64,000 nt of DNA from Flavobacterium tiangeerense (GTDB lineage: Bacteria > Bacteroidota > Bacteroidia > Flavobacteriales > Flavobacteriaceae), in the NCBI RefSeq assembly GCF_007830355.1, contig NZ_VLKO01000005.1:1-64000 (forward strand). Reading direction: 5' to 3'. Below the pieces are notes generated by a model. The model was not told where the DNA came from. It worked only from the letters and a program-made list of their open reading frames with translations, and searched no databases. This document shows positions 13,687-61,364 of this stretch, piece after piece (position 1 is the stretch's first letter; every line of letters begins with the position of its first letter). A program made the translations under genes and the position numbers.

Positions 13687-14223
13687 CTAAAAATACAACC
13701 TTACAAAAGGCATAAAACGGCTTCCGTAAATATTGTTTTCATCATCTATCACATTATACCGAACTCCAATAGTTGCAAATCCAGAGCGATAACCCGCTCC
13801 CAAGAATAGACCCGTGTTCCAGAAACTTTGAGAATTACTGTTAGATCCGTCTAAATTAACGTTTACTCTGAGTTGTTCTAATTCTGCTGATAATTGAATT
13901 TCCGGTAAAGGATTTAAAAGCCCAATAACACTCCCGCCATACAAGTGTGAGGCAAAGCTATTTTGTTGTTTTAAGTATTTATACTGCAAGCCAACTCCTA
14001 TAGAACCATATTCATTTACATTGTAAATGGCACTTGGAGCTAAAGAGATATCAGTATACCCTGACCCAAAGCCAAGACCTATGCCGCCGCCAAATTGTAC
14101 TTTATCCCAAAATTGTTGCTCTTTTGGAGTAGATGTATTGTCTTGCTGTGCCTTCACTTCATTAAAAAAAAACAAGACAAACAAGACAAAAAGGGTTCTA
14201 AAACGATTGAAAAAACATTTCAT
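13687..14223 (-). CDS. Outer membrane beta-barrel-like secreted protein, unknown function
   Basis: 178 residues. A signal peptide (about 1-25, ending EVKAQ) is followed by alternating beta strands: FGGGIGLGFGSGYTDISLAP, YGSIGVGLQYKYLKQQ, HLYGGSVIGLLNP, FWNTGLFLGAGYRSG and ATIGVRYNVI, ending in FMPFVRLYF. The aromatic last strand is typical of outer-membrane barrels, and the size suits an eight-stranded barrel. The gene runs convergently with the 134-residue gene and divergently from the 2-oxoglutarate dehydrogenase gene, 125 nt away. Some databases give such neighbours the name alpha-ketoglutarate decarboxylase by mistaken transfer; nothing in the sequence supports an enzyme. Confidence 0.7.
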   Translation of the reverse strand: MKCFFNRFRTLFVLFVLFFFNEVKAQQDNTSTPKEQQFWDKVQFGGGIGLGFGSGYTDISLAPSAIYNVNEYGSIGVGLQYKYLKQQNSFASHLYGGSVIGLLNPLPEIQLSAELEQLRVNVNLDGSNSNSQSFWNTGLFLGAGYRSGFATIGVRYNVIDDENNIYGSRFMPFVRLYF

Positions 14224-14301
14224 AGCTATAAGTTTTTAGTTTTTTAACAATATTCAACGTAAAAGTATCTTAAAATAAATTATAAATTTATTGTATTATC
14301 G

Positions 14302-14309
14302 TACTTTTG
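14302..14309 (+). promoter_or_regulatory. sucA promoter -7 element TACTTTTG
   Basis: TAnnTTTG element 39 bases before the ATG at 14349. The longest reading frame would start with a TTG inside this element (14307), so that upstream start is rejected. Confidence 0.65.
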
Positions 14310-14348
14310 CCAAACTATTTTAACAAAAAAGTATATTCACTACATATT

Positions 14349-17120
14349 ATGGATAGGTTTTCATTTTTAAACGCAGCACACACCGAATTTTTTGCACAGT
14401 TATACGATCAATATTTAGAGAATCCAGATAGCGTTGAGCCAAGTTGGAGAAGTTTTTTTCAAGGTTTTGACTTTGGGATGACGACTTACAATGAGGAAAA
14501 TCCAGTAGCACAATTGGCAAATTTTGCCTCTACCAATACTGATGTAAGTCTGGTTTCTGATAAACTCCAAAAAGAATTTAATGTTCTTAAGCTAATCGAT
14601 GGGTATCGTACACGAGGACATTTGTTTACAAAAACAAATCCTGTTAGAGCAAGACGTACCGTATCTCCTACACTTGATATTGTTAATTTTGGTTTGTCAT
14701 CATCAGATTTGAATACTGTTTTTGATGCTGCAAAAGCGATAAATATCCAACCGTGTACACTTCAAGAAATTATTACACATTTAGATACAATATATTGTCA
14801 GCACATCGGTATTGAGTATATGTATATTCGTAAACCTGAAGTGGTAGAGTGGATCCAGAAAAAACTTGGGGTAAATGACAATCAACCTAAGTTTTCTAAC
14901 GATGAGAAAAAAGCAATTTTAAATAAACTGAATCAAGCAGTGTCTTTTGAAAACTTTTTGCATACCAAATATGTGGGTCAAAAACGTTTTTCATTAGAAG
15001 GTGGTGAGTCAATCATACCAGCACTTGATGCGCTTATTGAGAAAGCAGCAGAGAAAGGTGTAGAGCAATTTGTAATGGGGATGGCCCACCGTGGTCGTCT
15101 TAATGTTTTGGCTAATATTTTTGGTAAATCAACCCAAGATATTTTTGGTGAATTTGATGGTAAAGATTATGATCAGGAGTACTTTGATGGAGATGTAAAA
15201 TACCATTTAGGTTTAACGGCTGATAAAGTAACAAGTACTGGCAAAAAAATAAATATTAATTTGGCGCCAAATCCTTCGCATCTTGAGACGGTAGGAGCAG
15301 TTATTGAAGGTATTACACGTGCCAAACAAGATAAATATTTTCCAGACGATTTCTCTAAAGTTTTACCTATTGCAGTTCATGGTGATGCTGCCATTGCAGG
15401 ACAAGGAATTTTGTATGAAATTGTTCAAATGGCGCAGCTTGATGGGTATAAAACAGGCGGTACCATTCACATTGTGATCAACAATCAAGTAGGTTTTACA
15501 ACAAACTATCTTGATGCCCGTTCTTCTACGTATTGTACCGATGTTGCAAAGGTTACACTCTCGCCAGTATTGCATGTAAACGCTGATGATGCAGAGTCTG
15601 TAGTACACGCTATGCAGTTTGCATTAGATTTCCGTATGCAATTTGGGTGTGATGTATTTATTGATTTATTAGGATATAGAAAATACGGTCATAATGAAGG
15701 TGACGAACCTCGTTTTACACAACCCGTTTTATATAAAATTATTGCAAAGCACAAAAACCCAAGAGATTTGTATACTGAAAAGTTACTTTCTGAAGGGGTT
15801 ATAAACGCTGATTTAGTTAAAACTTTAGAGAAAGAATACAAAGACGATCTGGATCAAAACTTAGAGGCTTCCCGTAAAAAAGATTTAACAATCATCACTC
15901 CGTTCATGCAAAACGAATGGGATGGATTCAAGCAAGTGTCAAATGATGTGATGCTTCAAAAAGTAGATACCAAGGTTGATAAAGCAACTTTAGATTCTAT
16001 TATTTCAACCGTATCAAGTTTACCAACAGACAAGAAATTCCTTAATAAAATCACAAAAATTGTTACCGATAGAAAAACAGTCTATGATAACAATACTATT
16101 GACTGGGGAACTGCAGAAACACTTGCTTATGGATCATTATTGACAGAAGGTTATGATGTTCGAATTTCAGGACAAGATGTTGAGCGTGGTACTTTTTCAC
16201 ACCGTCACGCAGTAGTAAAAGTTGAGGACTCAGAGGAAGAAGTAGTATTATTGGATCACATCCAAAACAAAAAAGGAAAATTCCGTATTTTCAATTCATT
16301 ACTTTCAGAGTACGGCGTACTTGGTTTTGATTACGGGTATGCACTAGCAAATCCAAATGCACTTACCATTTGGGAAGCACAATTTGGGGATTTCTCCAAT
16401 GGAGCTCAAATCATGATTGACCAATACATTTCATGTGGCGAAGACAAATGGAACAACCAGAACGGTATTGTTTTATTGTTGCCTCATGGGTATGAAGGAC
16501 AAGGAGCAGAGCACTCATCGGCAAGAATGGAACGATATTTACAACTTTGTGCACGTCACAACATGTACGTTGCCGATTGTACTACGCCAGCCAACTTTTT
16601 TCACTTGTTGAGAAGACAAATGAAAACCAATTTCCGTAAGCCGCTAGTTGTGTTTTCACCAAAAAGTTTATTGCGTGATCCAAGATGTGTTTCTACAGTT
16701 GAGGAATTAGCCAATGGAGAATTTCAAGAAACTATAGATGACGCTACAGTAAACAAAGCAGAGGTAAAAACCCTAGTATTCTGTACGGGTAAATTTTACT
16801 ATGATATTGTAGCCGAAAGAACCAACAACGGTCGTAATGACGTTGCAGTAGTTCGTGTGGAGCAATTGTTTCCACTACCGGTTGAACAACTTAAAGCGAT
16901 AATTGCACAGTATCCAAATGCAGATGATTATGTTTGGGCGCAAGAAGAGCCAAAAAACATGGGAGCTTATAGTTATATGTTGATGAATTTTGATTTGGTA
17001 AAATGGAGATTAGCATCTCTAAAAGCCTATGCAGCACCAGCAGCAGGAAGTTACACTAGAGCAAAAAGACGTCACGCTGATGCAATTAGAATGGTATTTG
17101 ACAAAAATTTATTTAGATAA
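14349..17120 (+). CDS. sucA: 2-oxoglutarate dehydrogenase E1 component
   Basis: 923 residues from the ATG at 14349, which begins MDRFSFLNAAHTEFFAQLYD, the normal start of the family. It contains the short E1 N-terminal segment, the TPP-binding half (VMGMAHRGRLNVL near 255, VHGDAAIAGQG near 350, HIVINNQVGFTT near 380), the transketolase-like pyrimidine domain (ISGQDVERGTFSHRHAVV near 610) and the C-terminal domain with PHGYEGQGAEHSSARMERYL near 720. It decarboxylates 2-oxoglutarate and transfers the succinyl group to E2 in the citric acid cycle. sucB follows by 83 nt, separated by an AT-rich inverted repeat and its own possible promoter. E3 is not in the window. Confidence 0.96.
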   Translation: MDRFSFLNAAHTEFFAQLYDQYLENPDSVEPSWRSFFQGFDFGMTTYNEENPVAQLANFASTNTDVSLVSDKLQKEFNVLKLIDGYRTRGHLFTKTNPVRARRTVSPTLDIVNFGLSSSDLNTVFDAAKAINIQPCTLQEIITHLDTIYCQHIGIEYMYIRKPEVVEWIQKKLGVNDNQPKFSNDEKKAILNKLNQAVSFENFLHTKYVGQKRFSLEGGESIIPALDALIEKAAEKGVEQFVMGMAHRGRLNVLANIFGKSTQDIFGEFDGKDYDQEYFDGDVKYHLGLTADKVTSTGKKININLAPNPSHLETVGAVIEGITRAKQDKYFPDDFSKVLPIAVHGDAAIAGQGILYEIVQMAQLDGYKTGGTIHIVINNQVGFTTNYLDARSSTYCTDVAKVTLSPVLHVNADDAESVVHAMQFALDFRMQFGCDVFIDLLGYRKYGHNEGDEPRFTQPVLYKIIAKHKNPRDLYTEKLLSEGVINADLVKTLEKEYKDDLDQNLEASRKKDLTIITPFMQNEWDGFKQVSNDVMLQKVDTKVDKATLDSIISTVSSLPTDKKFLNKITKIVTDRKTVYDNNTIDWGTAETLAYGSLLTEGYDVRISGQDVERGTFSHRHAVVKVEDSEEEVVLLDHIQNKKGKFRIFNSLLSEYGVLGFDYGYALANPNALTIWEAQFGDFSNGAQIMIDQYISCGEDKWNNQNGIVLLLPHGYEGQGAEHSSARMERYLQLCARHNMYVADCTTPANFFHLLRRQMKTNFRKPLVVFSPKSLLRDPRCVSTVEELANGEFQETIDDATVNKAEVKTLVFCTGKFYYDIVAERTNNGRNDVAVVRVEQLFPLPVEQLKAIIAQYPNADDYVWAQEEPKNMGAYSYMLMNFDLVKWRLASLKAYAAPAAGSYTRAKRRHADAIRMVFDKNLFR

Positions 17121-55075: not shown

Positions 55076-55111
55076 AACCTCAAATAATGAAAATTATTTG
55101 AGGTTTTTTTT
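55076..55111 (+). terminator. Terminator between ferredoxin and the SpeD operon
   Basis: Perfect 13-bp stem AACCTCAAATAAT / ATTATTTGAGGTT with GAAA loop and a run of T. Confidence 0.9.
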
Positions 55112-55177: not shown

Positions 55178-55540
55178 ATGAACCTTACGACCTATTCTCC
55201 TGGATTGCATAAACTAGTTACCTTGCAAGTTCAGGACTCTCAAAAATTAACGGATAGTGCCGGTTTCACTAAGGTTACAGAAGAAATTTTGACTCAATTT
55301 TCGCTAGAAAAAGTAGGTGTCGTAGTTCATGATTTCGAAAATAGGAGTTTCACTATTTCATTTTGCCTCAAAGAATCCCACATTTGTATTCACACTTGGC
55401 CAGAGTACAACCAGCTCACTTTAGATGTCTATTTGTGCAATTATTTACAAGACAATTCACAAAAAGTAAAAGATGTAATGGCTGCCTATGTGGCTTATTT
55501 TGATGGGGTGCTTATAAAAGATTTCGAAATTAACAGATAA
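55178..55540 (+). CDS. S-adenosylmethionine decarboxylase, SpeD-like (short prokaryotic form)
   Basis: 120 residues, like the small Thermotoga/Bacillus-type SpeD. Self-cleavage between Glu66 and Ser67 (KESHICIHTWPE) makes the pyruvoyl group. The proton donors are His72 and Cys87, keeping the exact spacing (Ser, +5, +20) of the Thermotoga enzyme (Ser63, His68, Cys83). It forms decarboxylated SAM, the aminopropyl donor. It is the first gene of a seven-gene operon ending at 61298. The DUF4178 gene begins 5 nt after its stop. The product must be consumed by the spermidine-synthase-like gene at 57178. Confidence 0.9.
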   Translation: MNLTTYSPGLHKLVTLQVQDSQKLTDSAGFTKVTEEILTQFSLEKVGVVVHDFENRSFTISFCLKESHICIHTWPEYNQLTLDVYLCNYLQDNSQKVKDVMAAYVAYFDGVLIKDFEINR

Positions 55541-55545
55541 TACGT

Positions 55546-56760
55546 ATGGAAGTTACCTGTACAAATTGCAATCATACCACACAATTAGATCTAAACTTTG
55601 ATGTAAAAATCTATGCGTGTACCAATTGCGTTTATGTTTATCAAGAACGAGATGGTTTACGATTTAAAGATCAATTAAGACCATTTACATTTTCAGATCA
55701 ATTACAAGTGGGTCAAGTAGGTATTTTTAACAATACCGATTACACCATTACGGGGATTTTGGTCAAAGAAAATGAAGGATTTGAATGGACGGAATACATC
55801 CTGCAAGGCAAAGAAAATTTTTTATATCTATCCGAAGCCGATGGGCACTGGATCATTCTTGAAGAAATAGAATTTGCTTCAAAAGTAGGGAATCATCCAT
55901 TAACGGTTGATTATGAAGAACTAACTTTTGACAGATACGATTATTTTTATCCCAAATTAATAGCGGCTCGCGGTTTTTTTGACTTTGATATTTTTGAGAA
56001 AGCAGAGCTCATTGAATATATAAATCCGCCTCAAGTACTTTCTTTTGAACGAAATGGAAGTGAACAAAATGCTTTTTTGGGGAAACACATTTCTAAAGCA
56101 GCAATTAAAAAAGCTTTCAAAGCTTCTTATTTACCCACTAAAGTTGGTGTAGGAATGGTGCAGCCTTTTCTGTTTAACTTGCGTAATTTAGCCATTACTC
56201 TATGCTGTGTTTTAGCATTAATTTTAGTGTCTAATTGGTATTTGAACAAAGAGCGTGTTCGAACAGAAGTCCTGGATACCCAATTAGCATTGGCAAACTT
56301 TAATTCTAAAGATTTTGTAAGTCCTAGTTTTACCCTTACCGGTAGCGCTGCACCATTAAAGGTACAATTGTATGCACCCGTGAGCAATTCGTGGGTCAAT
56401 GTTCAAGTAGCACTTATCAATGAAAAAACAGGTGAAGAAGTCTACGCTAGTAAAGATATTGAGCATTATTCAGGCTACACAGATGGTGAGTCATGGTCCG
56501 AAGGTTCAAATTCGGAGGAGTTTAATTTGTGTGGTATTCCTGCGGGAACCTATCATTTGAACATCACCCCAATGAAAGCTCCTGAAGATGTGAATAGTGA
56601 TTTTATAAATGTAAAAGTGGTTTGGAGCGAGCCTTCATCCAGAAATATTTGGCTCATTTTAATAATTATGGTTGTTTTTGTACTGATCTTGTATTATATA
56701 GAGAAAAATTTCGAAGCTAAAAGATGGGGAGAAACTAACGAGTCTTTTTTTAATTCTTAA
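55546..56760 (+). CDS. DUF4178 zinc-ribbon membrane protein
   Basis: 404 residues. An N-terminal zinc ribbon has Cys5/Cys8 and Cys25/Cys28 (CTNC repeats). A DUF4178-like beta domain follows (about 45-200; VGIFNNTDYTITGILVKENE, EWTEYILQGKENFLYLSEAD, GHWIILEEI). A transmembrane segment (about 217-236) is followed by an external beta-rich domain (about 250-370) and a second TM (about 370-390) with a short tail. DUF4178 proteins are found with SpeD/SpeE-like and DUF350 genes, but their activity is not known. The topology suggests that the ribbon is cytoplasmic and the middle domain periplasmic. 5 nt after speD, 2 nt before the next gene. Confidence 0.8.
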   Translation: MEVTCTNCNHTTQLDLNFDVKIYACTNCVYVYQERDGLRFKDQLRPFTFSDQLQVGQVGIFNNTDYTITGILVKENEGFEWTEYILQGKENFLYLSEADGHWIILEEIEFASKVGNHPLTVDYEELTFDRYDYFYPKLIAARGFFDFDIFEKAELIEYINPPQVLSFERNGSEQNAFLGKHISKAAIKKAFKASYLPTKVGVGMVQPFLFNLRNLAITLCCVLALILVSNWYLNKERVRTEVLDTQLALANFNSKDFVSPSFTLTGSAAPLKVQLYAPVSNSWVNVQVALINEKTGEEVYASKDIEHYSGYTDGESWSEGSNSEEFNLCGIPAGTYHLNITPMKAPEDVNSDFINVKVVWSEPSSRNIWLILIIMVVFVLILYYIEKNFEAKRWGETNESFFNS

Positions 56761-56762
56761 GT

Positions 56763-56948
56763 ATGGATAAGATTTTAGATTTTATGCGCAGTAATGCTCT
56801 TTCACTTGTGATAGGAGCTATTTTTTACGCTTTGTTTTTATATTACAACACCTCTGGCAGTCAGCTATGTGATTGCGAATCTACCGAAAATTATAAACCG
56901 TCATCTGTACACTCACGTGGTGCAGTAAACCGTTTTTATCATAAATAA
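56763..56948 (+). CDS. Small single-pass membrane protein of the SpeD operon
   Basis: 61 residues. One transmembrane helix (about 12-30, ALSLVIGAIFYALFLYYN) is followed by a soluble tail SGSQLCDCESTENYKPSSVH with a CDC motif. No family recognised. The gene begins 2 nt after the DUF4178 stop and is followed 21 nt later by DUF350, so it is read with them. The Cys pair next to the membrane could bind a metal or be lipid-modified; this is only a guess. Confidence 0.65.
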   Translation: MDKILDFMRSNALSLVIGAIFYALFLYYNTSGSQLCDCESTENYKPSSVHSRGAVNRFYHK

Positions 56949-56969
56949 ATTAATTTTAAACTATCAAAT

Positions 56970-57185
56970 ATGGATTTTATCGCTTCAAAACCTATTTTAA
57001 ACTCGCTTGTTTTTTCACTTTTAGGAATTATCATTTTGCTGATAGCGTACTTTATTATTGAAAAACTAACTCCCGAGAATACTTGGAAACAAATTACAGA
57101 AAAAAATAATACCGCTGTAGCTATTGTCTTTGGTGCACTTATTATTGGTTTTTCAATGATTATTAGTGCCGCAATACATGGGTAA
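56970..57185 (+). CDS. DUF350 membrane protein
   Basis: 71 residues, two transmembrane helices (about 10-30, NSLVFSLLGIIILLIAYFII; about 48-70, AVAIVFGALIIGFSMIISAA) with a short loop carrying KLTPENTWKQITEKNNTA. DUF350 members (YjfL and relatives) usually have one or more such pairs; this has one pair, half the YjfL length. They occur with glutathionylspermidine- or polyamine-related genes in many bacteria, but their function is unproven. The end overlaps the next gene by 8 bp. Confidence 0.8.
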   Translation: MDFIASKPILNSLVFSLLGIIILLIAYFIIEKLTPENTWKQITEKNNTAVAIVFGALIIGFSMIISAAIHG

Positions 57186-58695
57186 AAAATTTTTAAAGTT
57201 TGAATACCTGCTGCTTTTTGCTGTTTTTACAATTGCAACTTGTGGTTTGGTATATGAATTGGTTGCAGGAACATTGGCCAGTTACTTATTAGGCGATTCG
57301 GTAAAACAGTTTTCGTTTATCATAGGGGTTTATCTTTTCGCTATGGGAGTGGGTTCTTATTTTGCTAAATTCCTAACAAAGAACATGCTCAACACTTTTG
57401 TAGAAATTGAAATCTTGGTTGGGCTTATCGGTGGTTTAAGTTCTGTTGTACTGTTCTTGCTGTTTGAGAGCGTATACTCTTTTCAATTTATTTTATACCT
57501 GTTAGTGTTTATAACGGGCTGTCTTGTGGGACTTGAAATCCCATTGTTGATGAACATTTTAAAAGACAAAGTACAGTTTAGAGACTTGGTTTCTAATGTG
57601 TTTACTTTTGATTATATCGGAGCATTATTGGCATCCATATTATTTCCGTTAGTGTTGGTTCCTAAACTCGGAATCATGGGAACTTCCTTGTTTTTTGGGA
57701 TGATCAACGTGAGTATTGCCATTGCCTTGTGCTTTCTTTTAAAAGCCGAATTGAAGAGCGTGTATCTATTAAGGACGAAAGCCATTGGAGCTTTCTTAAT
57801 CTTGTTTATAGTGTACTTGTTTTCAAATTCTATTTTGTCGTATTCTGAAGGGAAACTGTACGGTGAAAACATTATTTACTCAAATGCAACTCCCTACCAG
57901 CGCATTGTGCTTACTCATAACAAGAGCGATTACCGCTTATACTTGAATAATAATTTGCAATTCAGTTCAACAGATGAATACCGATATCATGAAGCACTGG
58001 TGCATCCTGCTATGTCTATGGCCAAAAAAGTAGATAATGTGTTGGTTTTAGGCGGTGGAGACGGATTAGCCGTTCGAGAAATTTTGAAATACAAAGATGT
58101 AAAGCATGTCACTCTTGTAGATCTTGATGAAGGAATGACCAAGTTGTTTCAAACCAATTCTGTTTTGACTAAATTCAATCAAAATTCCTTGAATAATGCC
58201 AAAGTAGAAGTACTCAACAAAGATGCTTTTGTATGGGCTAAGAATACCAAAAAACAATATGATGTAGTGGTGGTGGACTTTCCAGATCCTTCAAATTACA
58301 GTTTAGGGAAGTTGTATTCTTGGAGTTTTTACAGTACCCTCAAACAAATTTTAACTCCTGATGCCGTGGTGGTAGTGCAAACAACCTCGCCGTATTTTGC
58401 TCCAAAATCGTTTTGGTGTATCAATAAAACCATGATGGAAGTTTTTCCTCAGGTGGATGCGTATCACGCCTATGTTCCTTCTTTTGGAGAATGGGGATTT
58501 TCAATTGCTATGAATGGGTTTCAAACTAATTTTAACACCGTAAACAGGCAAGTAGAAGGGTTGCGTTTTTACAATTATCAGTTTGATAAATTCAATTATT
58601 TTGCCAAAGATATGATTTCAAAAGACATTGAAATCAATCGATTAGATAACCAAATTTTAGTGCGCTACTTTGATGAAGAATGGGGAAAATTATAA
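57178..58695 (+). CDS. Membrane-fused spermidine synthase-like aminopropyltransferase
   Basis: 505 residues from the ATG at 57178. The first about 220 residues hold seven hydrophobic segments; the last about 270 form a spermidine-synthase domain with motif LVLGGGDGLAVRE (about 289-301), TLVDLDEGMTKLF, and the active-site region VVDFPDPSNYSLGKLYSWSF (catalytic Asp). The usual pattern is D(S/A)xDP; this membrane family has DxPDP. It would transfer aminopropyl from decarboxylated SAM to an unknown amine near the membrane. It overlaps the DUF350 gene by 8 bp and the flavin oxidase gene by 23 bp. A GTG four codons earlier is in frame but is less likely. Confidence 0.87.
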   Translation: MGKKFLKFEYLLLFAVFTIATCGLVYELVAGTLASYLLGDSVKQFSFIIGVYLFAMGVGSYFAKFLTKNMLNTFVEIEILVGLIGGLSSVVLFLLFESVYSFQFILYLLVFITGCLVGLEIPLLMNILKDKVQFRDLVSNVFTFDYIGALLASILFPLVLVPKLGIMGTSLFFGMINVSIAIALCFLLKAELKSVYLLRTKAIGAFLILFIVYLFSNSILSYSEGKLYGENIIYSNATPYQRIVLTHNKSDYRLYLNNNLQFSSTDEYRYHEALVHPAMSMAKKVDNVLVLGGGDGLAVREILKYKDVKHVTLVDLDEGMTKLFQTNSVLTKFNQNSLNNAKVEVLNKDAFVWAKNTKKQYDVVVVDFPDPSNYSLGKLYSWSFYSTLKQILTPDAVVVVQTTSPYFAPKSFWCINKTMMEVFPQVDAYHAYVPSFGEWGFSIAMNGFQTNFNTVNRQVEGLRFYNYQFDKFNYFAKDMISKDIEINRLDNQILVRYFDEEWGKL

Positions 58696-60298
58696 TACCT
58701 CGAGACGCTTTTTTGTAAAGACGGTTGCATTAGCTTTATTAGCAGTTCCATTTTTACAGGCATGTCAAGAAAAGGTAATTCAGGTTCTTATTCGTTTGTC
58801 TGGCACCAATCATATTTTGGGGCACCGATTGCGCACCAAAAACTTTCCAAAACCAACCAAACAAATTCATATTCCCTATTTAATTGTAGGAGGTGGAATA
58901 TCTGCACTAAGTGCTGCTAGGCAATTTTCAAAAAAAGGAATTCATGATTTTTTAGTGGTGGAATTAGAAAATCATTTGGGAGGAAATTCATCAAGTGGAG
59001 AAAATAAGTATTCTAAATATCCGCTAGGAGCGCACTACTTACCATTACCTAATAAATCCGATCAAGAACTGCTTGATTTTCTAGAGGAAGAAGCCATTAT
59101 TCAAGGTTATGATCATAAGGGTTTTCCAATATTTGATGTGCAACAACTCACATTTGCACCAGATGAAAGATTGTTTTATAGAAACAATTGGCAGGAAGGT
59201 TTGGTACCAAAAACAGGAAACACGCCAAATGAGGATGCACAAATTCAAGATTTTTTCTTGAAGATGAGCACTTTTAGAGCGGGTAAAGATAAGAACGGAG
59301 TGTATTATTTTGATATTCCGTTATCCAAATCTTCTCAGGAACCATCCATACGAGCTTTAGATAAATTGACAATGCAACAATGGATCACGCAAGAAGGATA
59401 CACAGCGCAACCACTCTTGAATTATATTGATTATTGCTGTAGAGATGATTTTGGTTTGGGGATCAAAGAAGTTTCGGCTTGGGCCGGTATTCACTACTTT
59501 GCAGCTCGTAAGCAGGACACGGCTCCAGATGGAAATGATACCGTACTTACTTGGCCAGAAGGCAATGCACGTTTGGCTTCACATTTAAAGAAATATACTC
59601 ATTCTAAAACACTAACCAATCACATTGTATTTGATGTAAAAATTGAAAACAATAAAGTAATTGCTGCCACATTTGATGCGCAAAATCAATCTTCACTTGA
59701 GATAATTGCCGATAAGGTTATTATGGCTACACCTCAGTTTGTCAATCAATACTTTTTTAAGGATCGAAAAAAAATCACCAAAGATTTTCACTACGCGCCT
59801 TGGTTTTTGGCAACTCTCGTAGTTTCAGAACTTCCAGATAATGGTAGTTTTCCCTTGTGCTGGGACAATGTAATTTATGGTTCAAAAGGGTTGGGGTATA
59901 TCTACGACCAACACCAAACGGTACAGCAAATCCAACCGAAGAAAGTGATTACGTATTATTATAGTTTTTCAACACTTGAGATTAAGAAAAACCGCCGACT
60001 GTTGTACTCCCAAAAAGAAAACTATTGGAAACAAATAGTTCTTGACGATTTAAAAATGGCGCATCCCACCATTGAAAGTTTTATAGAGGACATACACATT
60101 CATCGTTTGGGACATGGAATGATTAGTCCTGTTCCGGATTTTATTTTTGGTCAAGCCAAAAAAGAAGCTTCAGCTAGCATTGATAATCGGATTTTCTTTG
60201 CTCATTCTGATTTGGCTGGAATTTCAATTTTTGAAGAAGCATTTCATCAAGGTATTAACATTGTAAACACAATTCTAGATGGAGCAGCCGTGGATTGA
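58673..60298 (+). CDS. Tat-exported lipoprotein flavin oxidoreductase (amine-oxidase-like)
   Basis: 541 residues from the ATG at 58673. The signal has a twin-arginine motif SRRFFVK (10-16), a hydrophobic core, and a lipobox LQAC with Cys31, so it should be exported folded and lipid-anchored. An FAD-binding Rossmann motif is IVGGGISALSAARQF (71-85), with HLGGNSSSG following. The C-terminal end ISIFEEAFHQGINIVNTIL matches the last helix of flavin amine oxidases/desaturases. It overlaps the aminopropyltransferase gene by 23 bp. I infer a periplasmic oxidase or dehydrogenase acting on an amine or the product of its neighbour. The CQEKVIQ after Cys31 is an unusual short linker. Confidence 0.8.
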   Translation: MKNGENYNTSRRFFVKTVALALLAVPFLQACQEKVIQVLIRLSGTNHILGHRLRTKNFPKPTKQIHIPYLIVGGGISALSAARQFSKKGIHDFLVVELENHLGGNSSSGENKYSKYPLGAHYLPLPNKSDQELLDFLEEEAIIQGYDHKGFPIFDVQQLTFAPDERLFYRNNWQEGLVPKTGNTPNEDAQIQDFFLKMSTFRAGKDKNGVYYFDIPLSKSSQEPSIRALDKLTMQQWITQEGYTAQPLLNYIDYCCRDDFGLGIKEVSAWAGIHYFAARKQDTAPDGNDTVLTWPEGNARLASHLKKYTHSKTLTNHIVFDVKIENNKVIAATFDAQNQSSLEIIADKVIMATPQFVNQYFFKDRKKITKDFHYAPWFLATLVVSELPDNGSFPLCWDNVIYGSKGLGYIYDQHQTVQQIQPKKVITYYYSFSTLEIKKNRRLLYSQKENYWKQIVLDDLKMAHPTIESFIEDIHIHRLGHGMISPVPDFIFGQAKKEASASIDNRIFFAHSDLAGISIFEEAFHQGINIVNTILDGAAVD

Positions 60299-61298
60299 TA
60301 AGCCCAAAACAGATGTTGTTTTTATTCTAGCGCCTGCTTTTTTTGTGGTTACTGTCGTTTTTTTATTTCAAGATACGTTACAGTATGTGGAGGAGCATTT
60401 TTCCTTTTATACCTGGTTGTTTCTGATTGTTTTTATAGATGTGGCGCATGTGTATGCTACCTTGTTTAAAACGTATTTTGTTCCAGAGGTATTTCGAAAA
60501 AGATGGTCTTTATTGATTTTTCTTCCGATTTTATGTTTTGTAATTGGTATGATTCTCTTTAGTTTTGGAAGCCTTGTCTTTTGGTCAGTCTTGGCGTATG
60601 TAGCTGTTTTTCATTTTATAAGGCAGCAATATGGATTCATGCGCTTGTATTCACGCAAAGAAGTTAAAACCAAGTGGAGTACTTTTTACGATGCTTTAGT
60701 TATTTATACCGCTACAGGATATCCTATGTTGTATTGGTTTTTTTCAACACCTAGAGCCTTCAACTGGTTCACGCCCCACGATTTTGTAAAACTCGAACAT
60801 CAAGGAATTTTAAGTGTTTTGGGTTGGGTTTACGCACTAATTCTAGTAAGTTATCTAGTTTTTACGGGGTATAAATATGTAAAAGATCAGTATTTTAATA
60901 TTCCAAAAAACGCCATTATTGCAGGAACTTTTTTATCATGGTATTTCGGAATCGTATATTTTAATAATGATTTGGTTTTTACGTTACTCAATGTGGTGTC
61001 TCATGGTATTCCGTATATGGCTTTGATTTATCTTAATGATATTCAAAAAAAAACTACCAATACATATCGTTTTTTAGGTTCTCTGCGCGGTGCTAAAGGA
61101 GTACTTCTTTTTATTAGTTTTGTGGTTTTTATCGCTTTTTGCGAAGAATATTTTTGGGAAATATTGGTTTGGAACGATCAGTTTGCTGTTGCTAATTATG
61201 ATTTTTCCAGCTGGCAATTTATCTTGGTTCCCTTACTCACAGTACCTCAATTCACTCATTATTTACTAGATGGTTTTATTTGGAAATCCAAGAAGTAA
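60279..61298 (+). CDS. Polytopic membrane protein with intramembrane histidines, last gene of the SpeD operon
   Basis: 339 residues, eight or nine hydrophobic segments. Histidines lie in or next to these: His57 (FIDVAHVYATL), His112 (VFHFIRQQYGF), His242 (VSHGIPYM) and His327 (PQFTHYLLDGFIWK). Such a set could coordinate a metal, as in membrane di-iron enzymes, but no named motif is matched. It overlaps the flavin oxidase gene by 20 bp, so it is translationally coupled and probably part of the same system. Family not recognised by name; relatives are likely annotated as hypothetical. Confidence 0.7.
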   Translation: MEQPWIDKPKTDVVFILAPAFFVVTVVFLFQDTLQYVEEHFSFYTWLFLIVFIDVAHVYATLFKTYFVPEVFRKRWSLLIFLPILCFVIGMILFSFGSLVFWSVLAYVAVFHFIRQQYGFMRLYSRKEVKTKWSTFYDALVIYTATGYPMLYWFFSTPRAFNWFTPHDFVKLEHQGILSVLGWVYALILVSYLVFTGYKYVKDQYFNIPKNAIIAGTFLSWYFGIVYFNNDLVFTLLNVVSHGIPYMALIYLNDIQKKTTNTYRFLGSLRGAKGVLLFISFVVFIAFCEEYFWEILVWNDQFAVANYDFSSWQFILVPLLTVPQFTHYLLDGFIWKSKK

Positions 61299-61336: not shown

Positions 61337-61364
61337 AAAAAATCCTGATGATGAATCAGGATTT
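61337..61364 (-). terminator. Terminator between the SpeD operon and the DUF3050 gene
   Basis: AAATCCTGAT / ATCAGGATTT stem with short loop. On the minus strand it is followed by a run of T, and it may act both ways. Confidence 0.8.

What the first reader, a model, noticed from the sequence alone, without database searches (positions are those of the whole stretch)
55178..61298. Seven-gene SpeD/DUF4178/DUF350/membrane aminopropyltransferase/Tat flavin oxidase operon
All seven genes are on one strand with gaps of 5, 2 and 21 nt and overlaps of 8, 23 and 20 bp, isolated by terminators at both ends. SpeD keeps its pyruvoyl Ser67, His72 and Cys87; the synthase domain is fused to seven membrane segments; the flavin enzyme has both a twin-arginine motif and a lipobox. 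Known: SpeD and SpeE families make aminopropyl donors and transfer them. Known: many Bacteroidota make spermidine by the carboxyspermidine route instead, so this set is not needed for bulk spermidine. Inference: it aminopropylates (and then oxidises) something at or outside the membrane, such as a lipid, peptide or polyamine. DUF350 and DUF4178 occurring with SpeD/SpeE-like genes has been noted from genome context, but the biochemistry is unknown to me.
Basis: partly seen in the sequence, partly recalled or inferred. Interest (0 to 1): 0.78.

Follow-up and report, generated by a model that had tools for sequence, protein, structure and literature searches.

The report
Envelope protein C-terminal lysine aminopropylation system
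This seven-gene operon of a Flavobacterium-like bacterium pairs an aminopropyltransferase-family enzyme, predicted to be anchored in the membrane, with a tiny predicted membrane protein whose last residue is lysine, as in distant relatives, and the enzyme likely adds aminopropyl groups to that lysine outside the membrane, which would be a new protein modification in bacteria.

Summary
In detail: seven same-strand genes with the stated gaps and overlaps, in the same order in 78 of 80 related loci, the other two lying on short contigs. SpeD / membrane-SpeE / DUF350 / DUF4178 operons are in print without a known substrate. New here is a candidate substrate. The overlooked 61-residue gene encodes a one-helix protein ending His-Lys. 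A membrane protein or lipoprotein ending in lysine was found at 49 of 56 membrane-SpeE loci; three others carry a GSP_synth ligase and a partner ending Gly-Gly; at four none was found. Chosen blind, the longest ORF between DUF4178 and DUF350 ends in lysine in 20 of 24 intervals; background 13%. A search with the tail removed gave 118 of 120 listed homologues ending Gly-Lys. Beside GSP_synth ligases, 0 of 17 upstream ORFs end in lysine. Charges suggest that the SpeE domain lies outside, with the tail and the Tat-exported oxidase; this depends on counting one long predicted helix as two. Best reading: SpeD makes decarboxylated AdoMet, and membrane-SpeE aminopropylates the C-terminal lysine; oxidase and last gene process it. 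Nothing here is biochemically tested.

The parts
55076..55105 (+). terminator-like hairpin plus T run between the upstream ferredoxin-like gene and the operon
   Evidence: 13 pairs, T-rich tail
55178..55540 (+). SpeD: AdoMet decarboxylase family, pyruvoyl Ser67, His68, His72, Cys87
   Evidence: PF02675 71.9 bits; TIGR03330 63.3 bits, below its 75.65 equivalog cut-off; residues over 36 sequences
55546..56760 (+). DUF4178 protein: N-terminal CxxC pairs, DUF4178 domain, hydrophobic segment near residue 215, further domain, hydrophobic C-terminal segment
   Evidence: PF13785 52.7 bits, residues 54-183; segments read by eye from the translation
56763..56948 (+). 61-aa protein with one hydrophobic segment, ending ...NRFYHK: proposed substrate
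   Evidence: no Pfam/NCBIfam family; homologues in 79 of 80 named loci, all 79 ending HK; C-terminal Lys partner in 49 of 56 membrane-SpeE loci
56940..56945 (+). codons of the C-terminal His-Lys (CAT AAA) before TAA: proposed modification site
   Evidence: sequence; conservation
56970..57185 (+). DUF350, 71 aa, two hydrophobic segments
   Evidence: PF03994 55.8 bits; segments read by eye
57178..58695 (+). membrane-SpeE: membrane domain (residues about 4-214, counted as seven crossings) fused to an aminopropyltransferase domain (about 231-446)
   Evidence: NF002956 645.4 bits; AF2 model pLDDT 92.3; solved aminopropyltransferases match at residues about 222-503; catalytic residues invariant in 41 sequences; charge pattern
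58673..60298 (+). FAD amine-oxidase-family protein with twin-arginine motif and lipobox
   Evidence: PF13450 45.0, PF01593 31.8 bits; alignment A2, 20 sequences; profile hits to amine oxidases
60279..61298 (+). 339-aa polytopic membrane protein with invariant D54, H57, H112, H242, E289, E290, H327, D331 among others
   Evidence: alignment A1, 18 sequences; no Pfam or NCBIfam family above cut-off and no PDB sequence match; AF2 pLDDT 82.6; no confident fold match
61340..61364 (-). terminator-like hairpin of the converging DUF3050 gene, not of this operon

Best explanation
The operon encodes a SpeD-family AdoMet decarboxylase, a SpeE-family aminopropyltransferase predicted to be anchored in the membrane and a small predicted membrane protein that ends in lysine, and the most likely mechanism is that the transferase adds an aminopropyl group from decarboxylated AdoMet to the side-chain amine of that C-terminal lysine on the outer face of the inner membrane. 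Shown by the sequence and calls: the gene set and order, the conserved catalytic residues of SpeD and SpeE, and the conserved C-terminal lysine. Inferred: SpeD makes the donor in the cytoplasm; the SpeE domain lies outside; the donor reaches it, perhaps through the membrane domain or DUF350; SpeE makes N6-(3-aminopropyl)lysine (+57.06 Da), possibly more than once. More tentative: the Tat-exported flavoprotein oxidises the aminopropyl-lysine, either removing it in the manner of LSD1 or polyamine oxidase, or making a reactive aldehyde; the last gene, a polytopic protein with four invariant histidines, would be a membrane-embedded, probably metal-dependent, partner enzyme. DUF4178 may couple the complex to the cytoplasm.
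For: (1) A membrane protein or lipoprotein ending in Lys was found at 49 of 56 loci with full-length membrane-SpeE; 3 others (L061, L062, L160) carry GSP_synth and a partner ending Gly-Gly; none was found at L040, L056, L057, L060. In 4 of the 49 (L158, L159, L170, L171) K-ending was the search criterion and 2 (L033, L151) were read by eye. The 49 form 44 clusters at 60% identity. (2) Blind rule, longest ORF between DUF4178 and DUF350: 20 of 24 end in K; background 90 of 688 gene-like ORFs. (3) Homologue search with a lipoprotein alignment cut short by about 16 residues: 118 of the 120 listed (237 found) end in GK. (4) Tail fused to a DUF4178 domain in L053 and L166 keeps the lysine. (5) Blind rule at GSP_synth loci: 0 of 17 immediately upstream ORFs (21 loci) end in K; Fisher against 20 of 24, 5e-8, ignoring relatedness. 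Genome G188 has one system of each kind (L030 ...FYHK; L197 ...RGFGG). E. coli YjfM ends ...WGG beside YjfC, annotated peptide--spermidine ligase. (6) SpeE Y270-H271-E272, D317, D349, D367-x-x-D370 and Q401 invariant in 41. (7) Mean K+R over 41 sequences: N-terminus and loops 2-3, 4-5, 6-7 have 2.3, 2.3, 3.0, 3.5; loops 1-2, 3-4, 5-6 have 0.0, 0.02, 0.2, which puts the SpeE domain outside if there are seven crossings. The oxidase has a Tat motif and lipobox. (8) A candidate for another triamine route is present in 29 of 32 genomes.
Against: No modification has been observed. The donor would have to cross the membrane; no transporter for decarboxylated AdoMet is known to me. The outside placement depends on counting helix 134-187 of the model as two crossings; with one, the SpeE domain would be inside. 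K or R also occurs at position 168, just beyond loop 5-6 as I bounded it, in 21 of 41, and the charge bias of the 61-aa family (N-in, C-out) is weak. Three hybrid loci have membrane-SpeE with a Gly-Gly tail, so SpeE does not always face a tail lysine; L056, L057 and L060 have no tail protein in the fetched stretch. Some other hydrophobic neighbours at GSP_synth loci do end in K (L179:1406-2023, L183:3208-3531, L184:3302-3691, L189:749-1081). AAA is the lysine codon in 42 of 47, so part of the conservation could be nucleotide-level, although AAG occurs 5 times and AAA is kept in genomes of up to 73% GC. This genome has no other full-length SpeE, so a spermidine role is not excluded. The last gene's metal-enzyme reading rests on invariant residues alone.
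Confidence: 0.55

Rival explanations
1. SpeE aminopropylates a membrane lipid or an exported small molecule, and the lysine-ended protein is a regulatory or scaffold subunit whose C-terminus is needed for binding.
For: The enzyme has a large predicted membrane domain; DUF350 and the polytopic last gene would suit a lipid substrate; a paper on related operons proposes effects on membrane structure (PMC11237479, passages read).
Against: A binding tail need not be exactly C-terminal Lys and almost never Arg (1 Arg among 120), and the upstream protein at ligase loci lacks it (0 of 17).
Confidence: 0.17
2. The set simply makes spermidine or a related soluble polyamine at the membrane.
For: SpeD and SpeE domains keep their catalytic residues, and this genome has no other SpeD and no other full-length SpeE.
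Against: A candidate for another triamine route is present in 29 of 32 genomes, including this one; the system is patchy (7 of 24 same-genus genomes); it does not explain the lysine tail, the Tat oxidase or the membrane domain. Recalled, not read: Li et al. 2019 reported that such fusions do not complement a spermidine synthase mutant.
Confidence: 0.1
3. The C-terminal lysine is a cell-wall anchor, as in Braun's lipoprotein, joined to peptidoglycan by an L,D-transpeptidase; SpeE modifies something else.
For: Braun's lipoprotein also has a C-terminal Lys that is linked to the wall (recalled); the tails are probably extracytoplasmic.
Against: No transpeptidase domain among the seven genes; partners at ligase loci often have similar Gly/Ser/Arg-rich ends without Lys; the shortest tail proteins are about 45-60 aa.
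Confidence: 0.06
4. Same substrate, other side: the tail is aminopropylated in the cytoplasm, before insertion, by a SpeE domain that lies inside.
For: SpeD and AdoMet are cytoplasmic, so no donor export is needed; the model lists residues 134-187 as one helix, and six crossings would put the domain inside.
Against: A 54-residue helix is about twice a membrane crossing, with invariant Pro162 in the middle; positive-inside pattern over 41 sequences; the type-B partners have lipoprotein signals and the oxidase a Tat signal.
Confidence: 0.14

Closest known systems
E. coli YjfM-YjfC and YgiB-YgiC (DUF1190 protein plus ATP-grasp peptide-spermidine ligase; with DUF350 YjfL)
   Same: DUF350 beside a protein with a Gly/Ser/Arg-rich tail and an enzyme that handles polyamine groups (yjf genes; ygi genes recalled); ligase activity known from a paper title seen in reference lists (Pederick 2023).
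   Different: YjfM ends Gly-Gly and the enzyme is an ATP-grasp ligase acting on a carboxylate; here the tail ends in Lys and the enzyme is an aminopropyltransferase. This genome has no GSP_synth.
SpeE-7TM / DUF350 / DUF4178 / Ctha_1186 lipoprotein operons described with PspA (PMC11237479, passages read)
   Same: Same SpeE fusion, DUF350 and DUF4178; the type-B lipoprotein of this report is the Ctha_1186 family (P0158).
   Different: No PspA or CesT gene among the seven here; a 61-aa helix protein replaces the lipoprotein; the last gene is added (an oxidase is mentioned for a variant in that paper). Its main text has no occurrence of 'lysine'.
Polyamine aminopropyltransferases (soluble SpeE; PDB 1uir, 7xif, 6qmm)
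   Different: Fused membrane domain, predicted extracytoplasmic; acceptor-side motifs differ (DFPDPSNYSLGKLYS and QTTSPY here).
Aminopropylated microcin C and diatom silaffins (the first a title seen in the references of PMC13381572; the second recalled)
   Same: Precedents for putting aminopropyl units on a peptide, in silaffins on lysine side chains.
   Different: Microcin C is a peptide-nucleotide antibiotic and silaffins are eukaryotic; to my knowledge neither uses a membrane-SpeE or a C-terminal lysine.

Membership tests
Membrane-fused polyamine aminopropyltransferase (NF002956/PRK03612) | score above the curated cut-off | tested here: met
   645.4 bits against 472
Membrane-fused polyamine aminopropyltransferase (NF002956/PRK03612) | donor-side catalytic residues kept | tested here: met
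   YHE, GGGDG, D317, D349, DxxD, Q401 invariant or nearly so in 41 sequences
Membrane-fused polyamine aminopropyltransferase (NF002956/PRK03612) | aminopropyl transfer to a polyamine | not testable with these tools
   needs an enzyme assay
AdoMet decarboxylase, Bacillus type (TIGR03330) | equivalog cut-off | tested here: not met
   63.3 bits against 75.65; the broader PF02675 is met, 71.9 against 25, so it is filed only as SpeD family
AdoMet decarboxylase, Bacillus type (TIGR03330) | pyruvoyl Ser with His and Cys | tested here: met
   Ser67, His68, His72, Cys87 in the window
YgiBC/YjfMC peptide-spermidine ligase system | GSP_synth ATP-grasp enzyme | tested here: not met
   no PF03738 match in G000
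YgiBC/YjfMC peptide-spermidine ligase system | exported partner protein with modified C-terminus | tested here: inconclusive
   protein with conserved C-terminus present, but it ends in Lys and no modification can be tested
PspA/CesT envelope-stress operon (PMC11237479, second group) | PspA-CesT/Tir pair in the operon | tested here: not met
   none among the seven genes
Flavin amine oxidase (PF01593) | score above gathering cut-off | tested here: met
   31.8 against 19.8
Braun-type lipoprotein | lipobox plus C-terminal Lys | tested here: not met
   the 61-aa protein has C-terminal Lys, but no lipobox was recognised by eye in its sequence
Known fold for the last gene | match to a solved structure | tested here: inconclusive

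The most novel reading that the evidence does not exclude
Bacteria of several phyla carry an extracytoplasmic protein-lysine aminopropylation system: decarboxylated AdoMet is exported and a membrane-SpeE makes N6-(3-aminopropyl)lysine, or a longer polyamine chain, on the very C-terminal lysine of a dedicated envelope protein. It is a sister chemistry to the ATP-grasp ligases beside tails ending in Gly or Ser, and in Bacteroidota a Tat oxidase and a new membrane enzyme rewrite or crosslink the mark.
Probability: 0.37. Interest if true: 0.92.

Novelty: new variant of a known kind. Interest (0 to 1): 0.8.

Why it matters
Many genomes carry a SpeD plus membrane-SpeE pair whose substrate is unknown ('thousands' of such SpeD genes in Li et al. 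2019, recalled). If the C-terminal lysine is the acceptor, that question becomes testable with one peptide and one mass spectrum. It would add a post-translational modification with an AdoMet-derived donor, probably outside the cytoplasm, and would unify two sets of envelope operons (SpeE type, partner ends in K; ATP-grasp type, partner ends otherwise, often G or S) as tail-modifying systems.

Tried and rejected
Phage-defence reading: PADLOC gave one hit in six proteins (mad2, SpeE domain, 69.5 bits); rejected.

Bulk spermidine as the main role: weakened but not excluded.

Fold of the last gene: Foldseek, VIA-align and PDB sequence search gave nothing usable. A resemblance to four-histidine membrane oxygenases came to mind from memory only and is not claimed.

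Nucleotide-level explanation of the tail lysine: checked by codons; AAA dominates (42 of 47) but AAG occurs and the residue holds in high-GC genomes, so rejected as the main cause.

First comparison with GSP_synth loci used partners picked by eye for a Gly/Ser/Arg-rich end (0 of 15 in K, Fisher 6e-15). The choice was not blind, so it is replaced by the rule (0 of 17).

VIA-align of the membrane-SpeE model listed only matches dominated by the SpeE domain in the 50 rows shown, so it did not settle the number of membrane crossings.

Actinobacterial DUF4247 variants could not be reached with these tools.

Literature: nine searches; I saw no title or abstract in their listings that reports C-terminal lysine aminopropylation of envelope proteins. 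Most subscription papers are not held. Seen as passages only: PMC11237479, PMC10407285, PMC11107197, PMC12568646, PMC10948618, PMC12270671, PMC13381572, PMC9992855. Li et al. 2019 and Pederick et al. 2023: titles seen in reference lists, content recalled.

Full report
What is there. The seven genes are real, tightly packed and on one strand. Families: SpeD; DUF4178; an unassigned 61-aa protein; DUF350; membrane-SpeE; an FAD amine-oxidase-family protein; an unassigned 339-aa membrane protein. The best-matching named record is a Flavobacterium (last gene 96% identical). The left terminator-like hairpin is on the operon's strand; the right one belongs to the opposite-strand DUF3050 gene.

Is the set conserved? 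In an even sample of 295 class genomes the last gene is in 20. In 18 of these it lies beside membrane-SpeE and the oxidase: in 12 in the order of the window, in 6 more distant loci as SpeE - last gene - oxidase. In G149 it is near the end of another contig, and G280 has a fragment. The oxidase, without the last gene in the stretch fetched, accompanies membrane-SpeE in plasmid-collection records of Novosphingobium, Gemmatirosa and Burkholderia. The system is patchy: 7 of 24 same-genus genomes have membrane-SpeE.

The overlooked gene. Homologues of the 61-aa gene were found in 79 of the 80 named loci (L091 lacks it, contig end). All 79 end in HK, behind a hydrophobic segment. I then read the gene upstream of DUF350, or near membrane-SpeE where DUF350 is elsewhere, in all 56 fetched loci with full-length membrane-SpeE outside those 80 (50 from Bacteroidota genomes, 6 from plasmid-collection records of Proteobacteria and Gemmatimonadota; two loci, L040 and L067, are from one genome). 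In 49 a membrane protein or lipoprotein ends in Lys: 30 short proteins or fusions (His before Lys in 23, Gly in 6, Val in 1) and 19 type-B proteins with Gly before Lys in all 19. Type B is mostly lipoproteins of about 230-510 aa; L067 is cut by a contig end and L166 is a DUF4178 fusion. Of the other seven, L061, L062 and L160 end in Gly-Gly beside a GSP_synth ligase (PF03738). In L040 (contig end), L056, L057 and L060 none was found.

Selection bias. In four of the 49 (L158, L159, L170, L171) I found the protein by looking for hydrophobic ORFs ending in K, and L033 and L151 were read by eye (L151 has no standard start codon in that frame), so these six are not independent. Two further tests avoid the bias. 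First, the longest ORF in the DUF4178-DUF350 interval, chosen without regard to its end, ends in K in 20 of the 24 intervals that the rule could score. The four others are L031 and L169 (a shorter, hydrophobic ORF ends in K), L033 and L151. The background is 90 of 688 gene-like ORFs of 120 aa or more. Second, a type-B lipoprotein alignment cut short by about 16 residues found 237 homologues; of the 120 listed, 118 end in GK, one (P0149) is a record marked partial, and one ends RRR. In three same-genus genomes (L036, L037, L039) a second membrane protein of 267-288 aa, without a Pfam family in the two tested, lies directly upstream of membrane-SpeE and also ends in FGK. In L053 and L166 the tail is fused to a DUF4178 domain (29.3 and 52.7 bits, cut-off 25). 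The codon is AAA in 42 and AAG in 5 of 47.

The switch. DUF350 also occurs with ATP-grasp enzymes, as in E. coli yjfLMC, where YjfC is annotated peptide--spermidine ligase and YjfM ends ...WGG. GSP_synth occurs in 21 of 295 class genomes. A blind rule (longest same-strand ORF of 60 aa or more ending -60 to +150 nt from the ligase ORF) found an upstream ORF in 17 of the 21 loci: last residue S in 6, G in 4, E in 3, A in 2, N in 1, D in 1, never K. L198 and L199 among them are the hybrid loci L062 and L061. Not all 17 look like tail proteins (L180, L184 and L188 do not), and other hydrophobic neighbours at four ligase loci end in K. Fisher's exact test for 20 of 24 against 0 of 17 gives 5e-8 (relatedness ignored). 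Genome G188 has both systems, each with its own kind of tail (L030 ...SFYHK; L197 ...RGFGG). A partner that ends in a free amine where an aminopropyltransferase is encoded, and not where a carboxylate ligase is encoded, is what tail modification predicts.

Where it happens. The AlphaFold2 model of membrane-SpeE (36 sequences, mean pLDDT 92.3) has a helical membrane domain before a SpeE fold that matches solved aminopropyltransferases. Over 41 sequences the N-terminus and loops 2-3, 4-5 and 6-7 carry 2.3-3.5 Lys+Arg on average; loops 1-2, 3-4 and 5-6 (residues 161-166) carry 0.0-0.2, and the stretch after the last helix 1.5. Position 168 is Lys or Arg in 21 of 41. With seven crossings the positive-inside rule puts the SpeE domain outside. 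The count rests on taking model helix 134-187 as a hairpin: it is 54 residues long, Pro162 is invariant and Gly165 present in 40 of 41, and hydropathy dips at 166-168 between two peaks. This is inference; six crossings would put the domain inside. The tail proteins are weakly C-out by charge or lipoproteins, and the oxidase is a Tat-type lipoprotein. How decarboxylated AdoMet would get out is unknown; the membrane domain or DUF350 is a guess.

Bulk polyamines. Of 32 genomes with membrane-SpeE that I chose, 21 have a deoxyhypusine-synthase-family gene (homospermidine-type candidate), 4 have nspC above cut-off and 6 have a second SpeE above 190 bits; together 29 of 32 (missing G036, G237, G345). 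The window's genome has the first kind, next to an arginine-decarboxylase-like gene, and no nspC match. These two genes score below the NCBIfam equivalog cut-offs, so their activity is inferred.

Oxidase and last gene. In the 60 of 140 PDB hits shown, mostly the FAD-binding part of the oxidase profile matches; putrescine oxidases match over a longer stretch. In the 30 short-tail loci, tallied by hand, His-Lys tails occur in 21 of 22 loci with the oxidase and in 2 of 8 without. The last gene has invariant D54, H57, H112, H242, E289, E290, H327 and D331 among others and no recognised relative of known structure. That it is an enzyme is inference.

Prior knowledge. PMC11237479 (passages read) describes membrane-SpeE / DUF350 / DUF4178 / Ctha_1186-lipoprotein operons, variants with AdoMet decarboxylase and polyamine oxidase, and suggests aminopropylation of other substrates; it does not mention lysine in its main text. 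Li et al. 2019 (not held; recalled) showed that such SpeDs are active and that the fusion does not complement spermidine synthase. The gene association is therefore known; the C-terminal-lysine substrate, the switch at ligase loci, the likely extracytoplasmic placement and the last gene are what this report adds. Verdict: a new variant of a known but unexplained kind, with a specific and cheaply testable mechanism.

Noticed in passing
L061, L062, L160: Hybrid loci with membrane-SpeE, SpeD and a GSP_synth ligase, partner protein ending Gly-Gly; SpeE might extend a polyamine that the ligase has attached.
   Followed up: partly
L036:8224-9090, L037:5238-6041, L039:6011-6817: A second membrane protein directly upstream of membrane-SpeE also ends FGK.
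   Followed up: partly
L053:9195-10589 and L166:5760-6464: DUF4178 domain and lysine tail fused into one polypeptide.
   Followed up: yes
L033 (G057:C1): DUF4178, oxidase and last gene are each split over frames in this assembly; sequencing errors or decay.
   Followed up: no
G000:C4 (L178:12712-13683 and 13776-15176): Deoxyhypusine-synthase-family gene beside an arginine-decarboxylase-like gene: candidate homospermidine route of the host.
   Followed up: partly
L178:2578-3243: Second PF01564-type protein, 221 aa, closest to PRK04457 at 55 bits, far below cut-off; function unclear.
   Followed up: no
L056, L057: Membrane-SpeE preceded by a 715-747-aa gene, without DUF350 or tail protein found nearby: a third arrangement.
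   Followed up: no
window:61390-63445 and L151, L152: Genes that look by sequence like the DUF3050 and acyl-CoA dehydrogenase neighbours of the window's operon also lie next to it in two other same-genus genomes.
   Followed up: no
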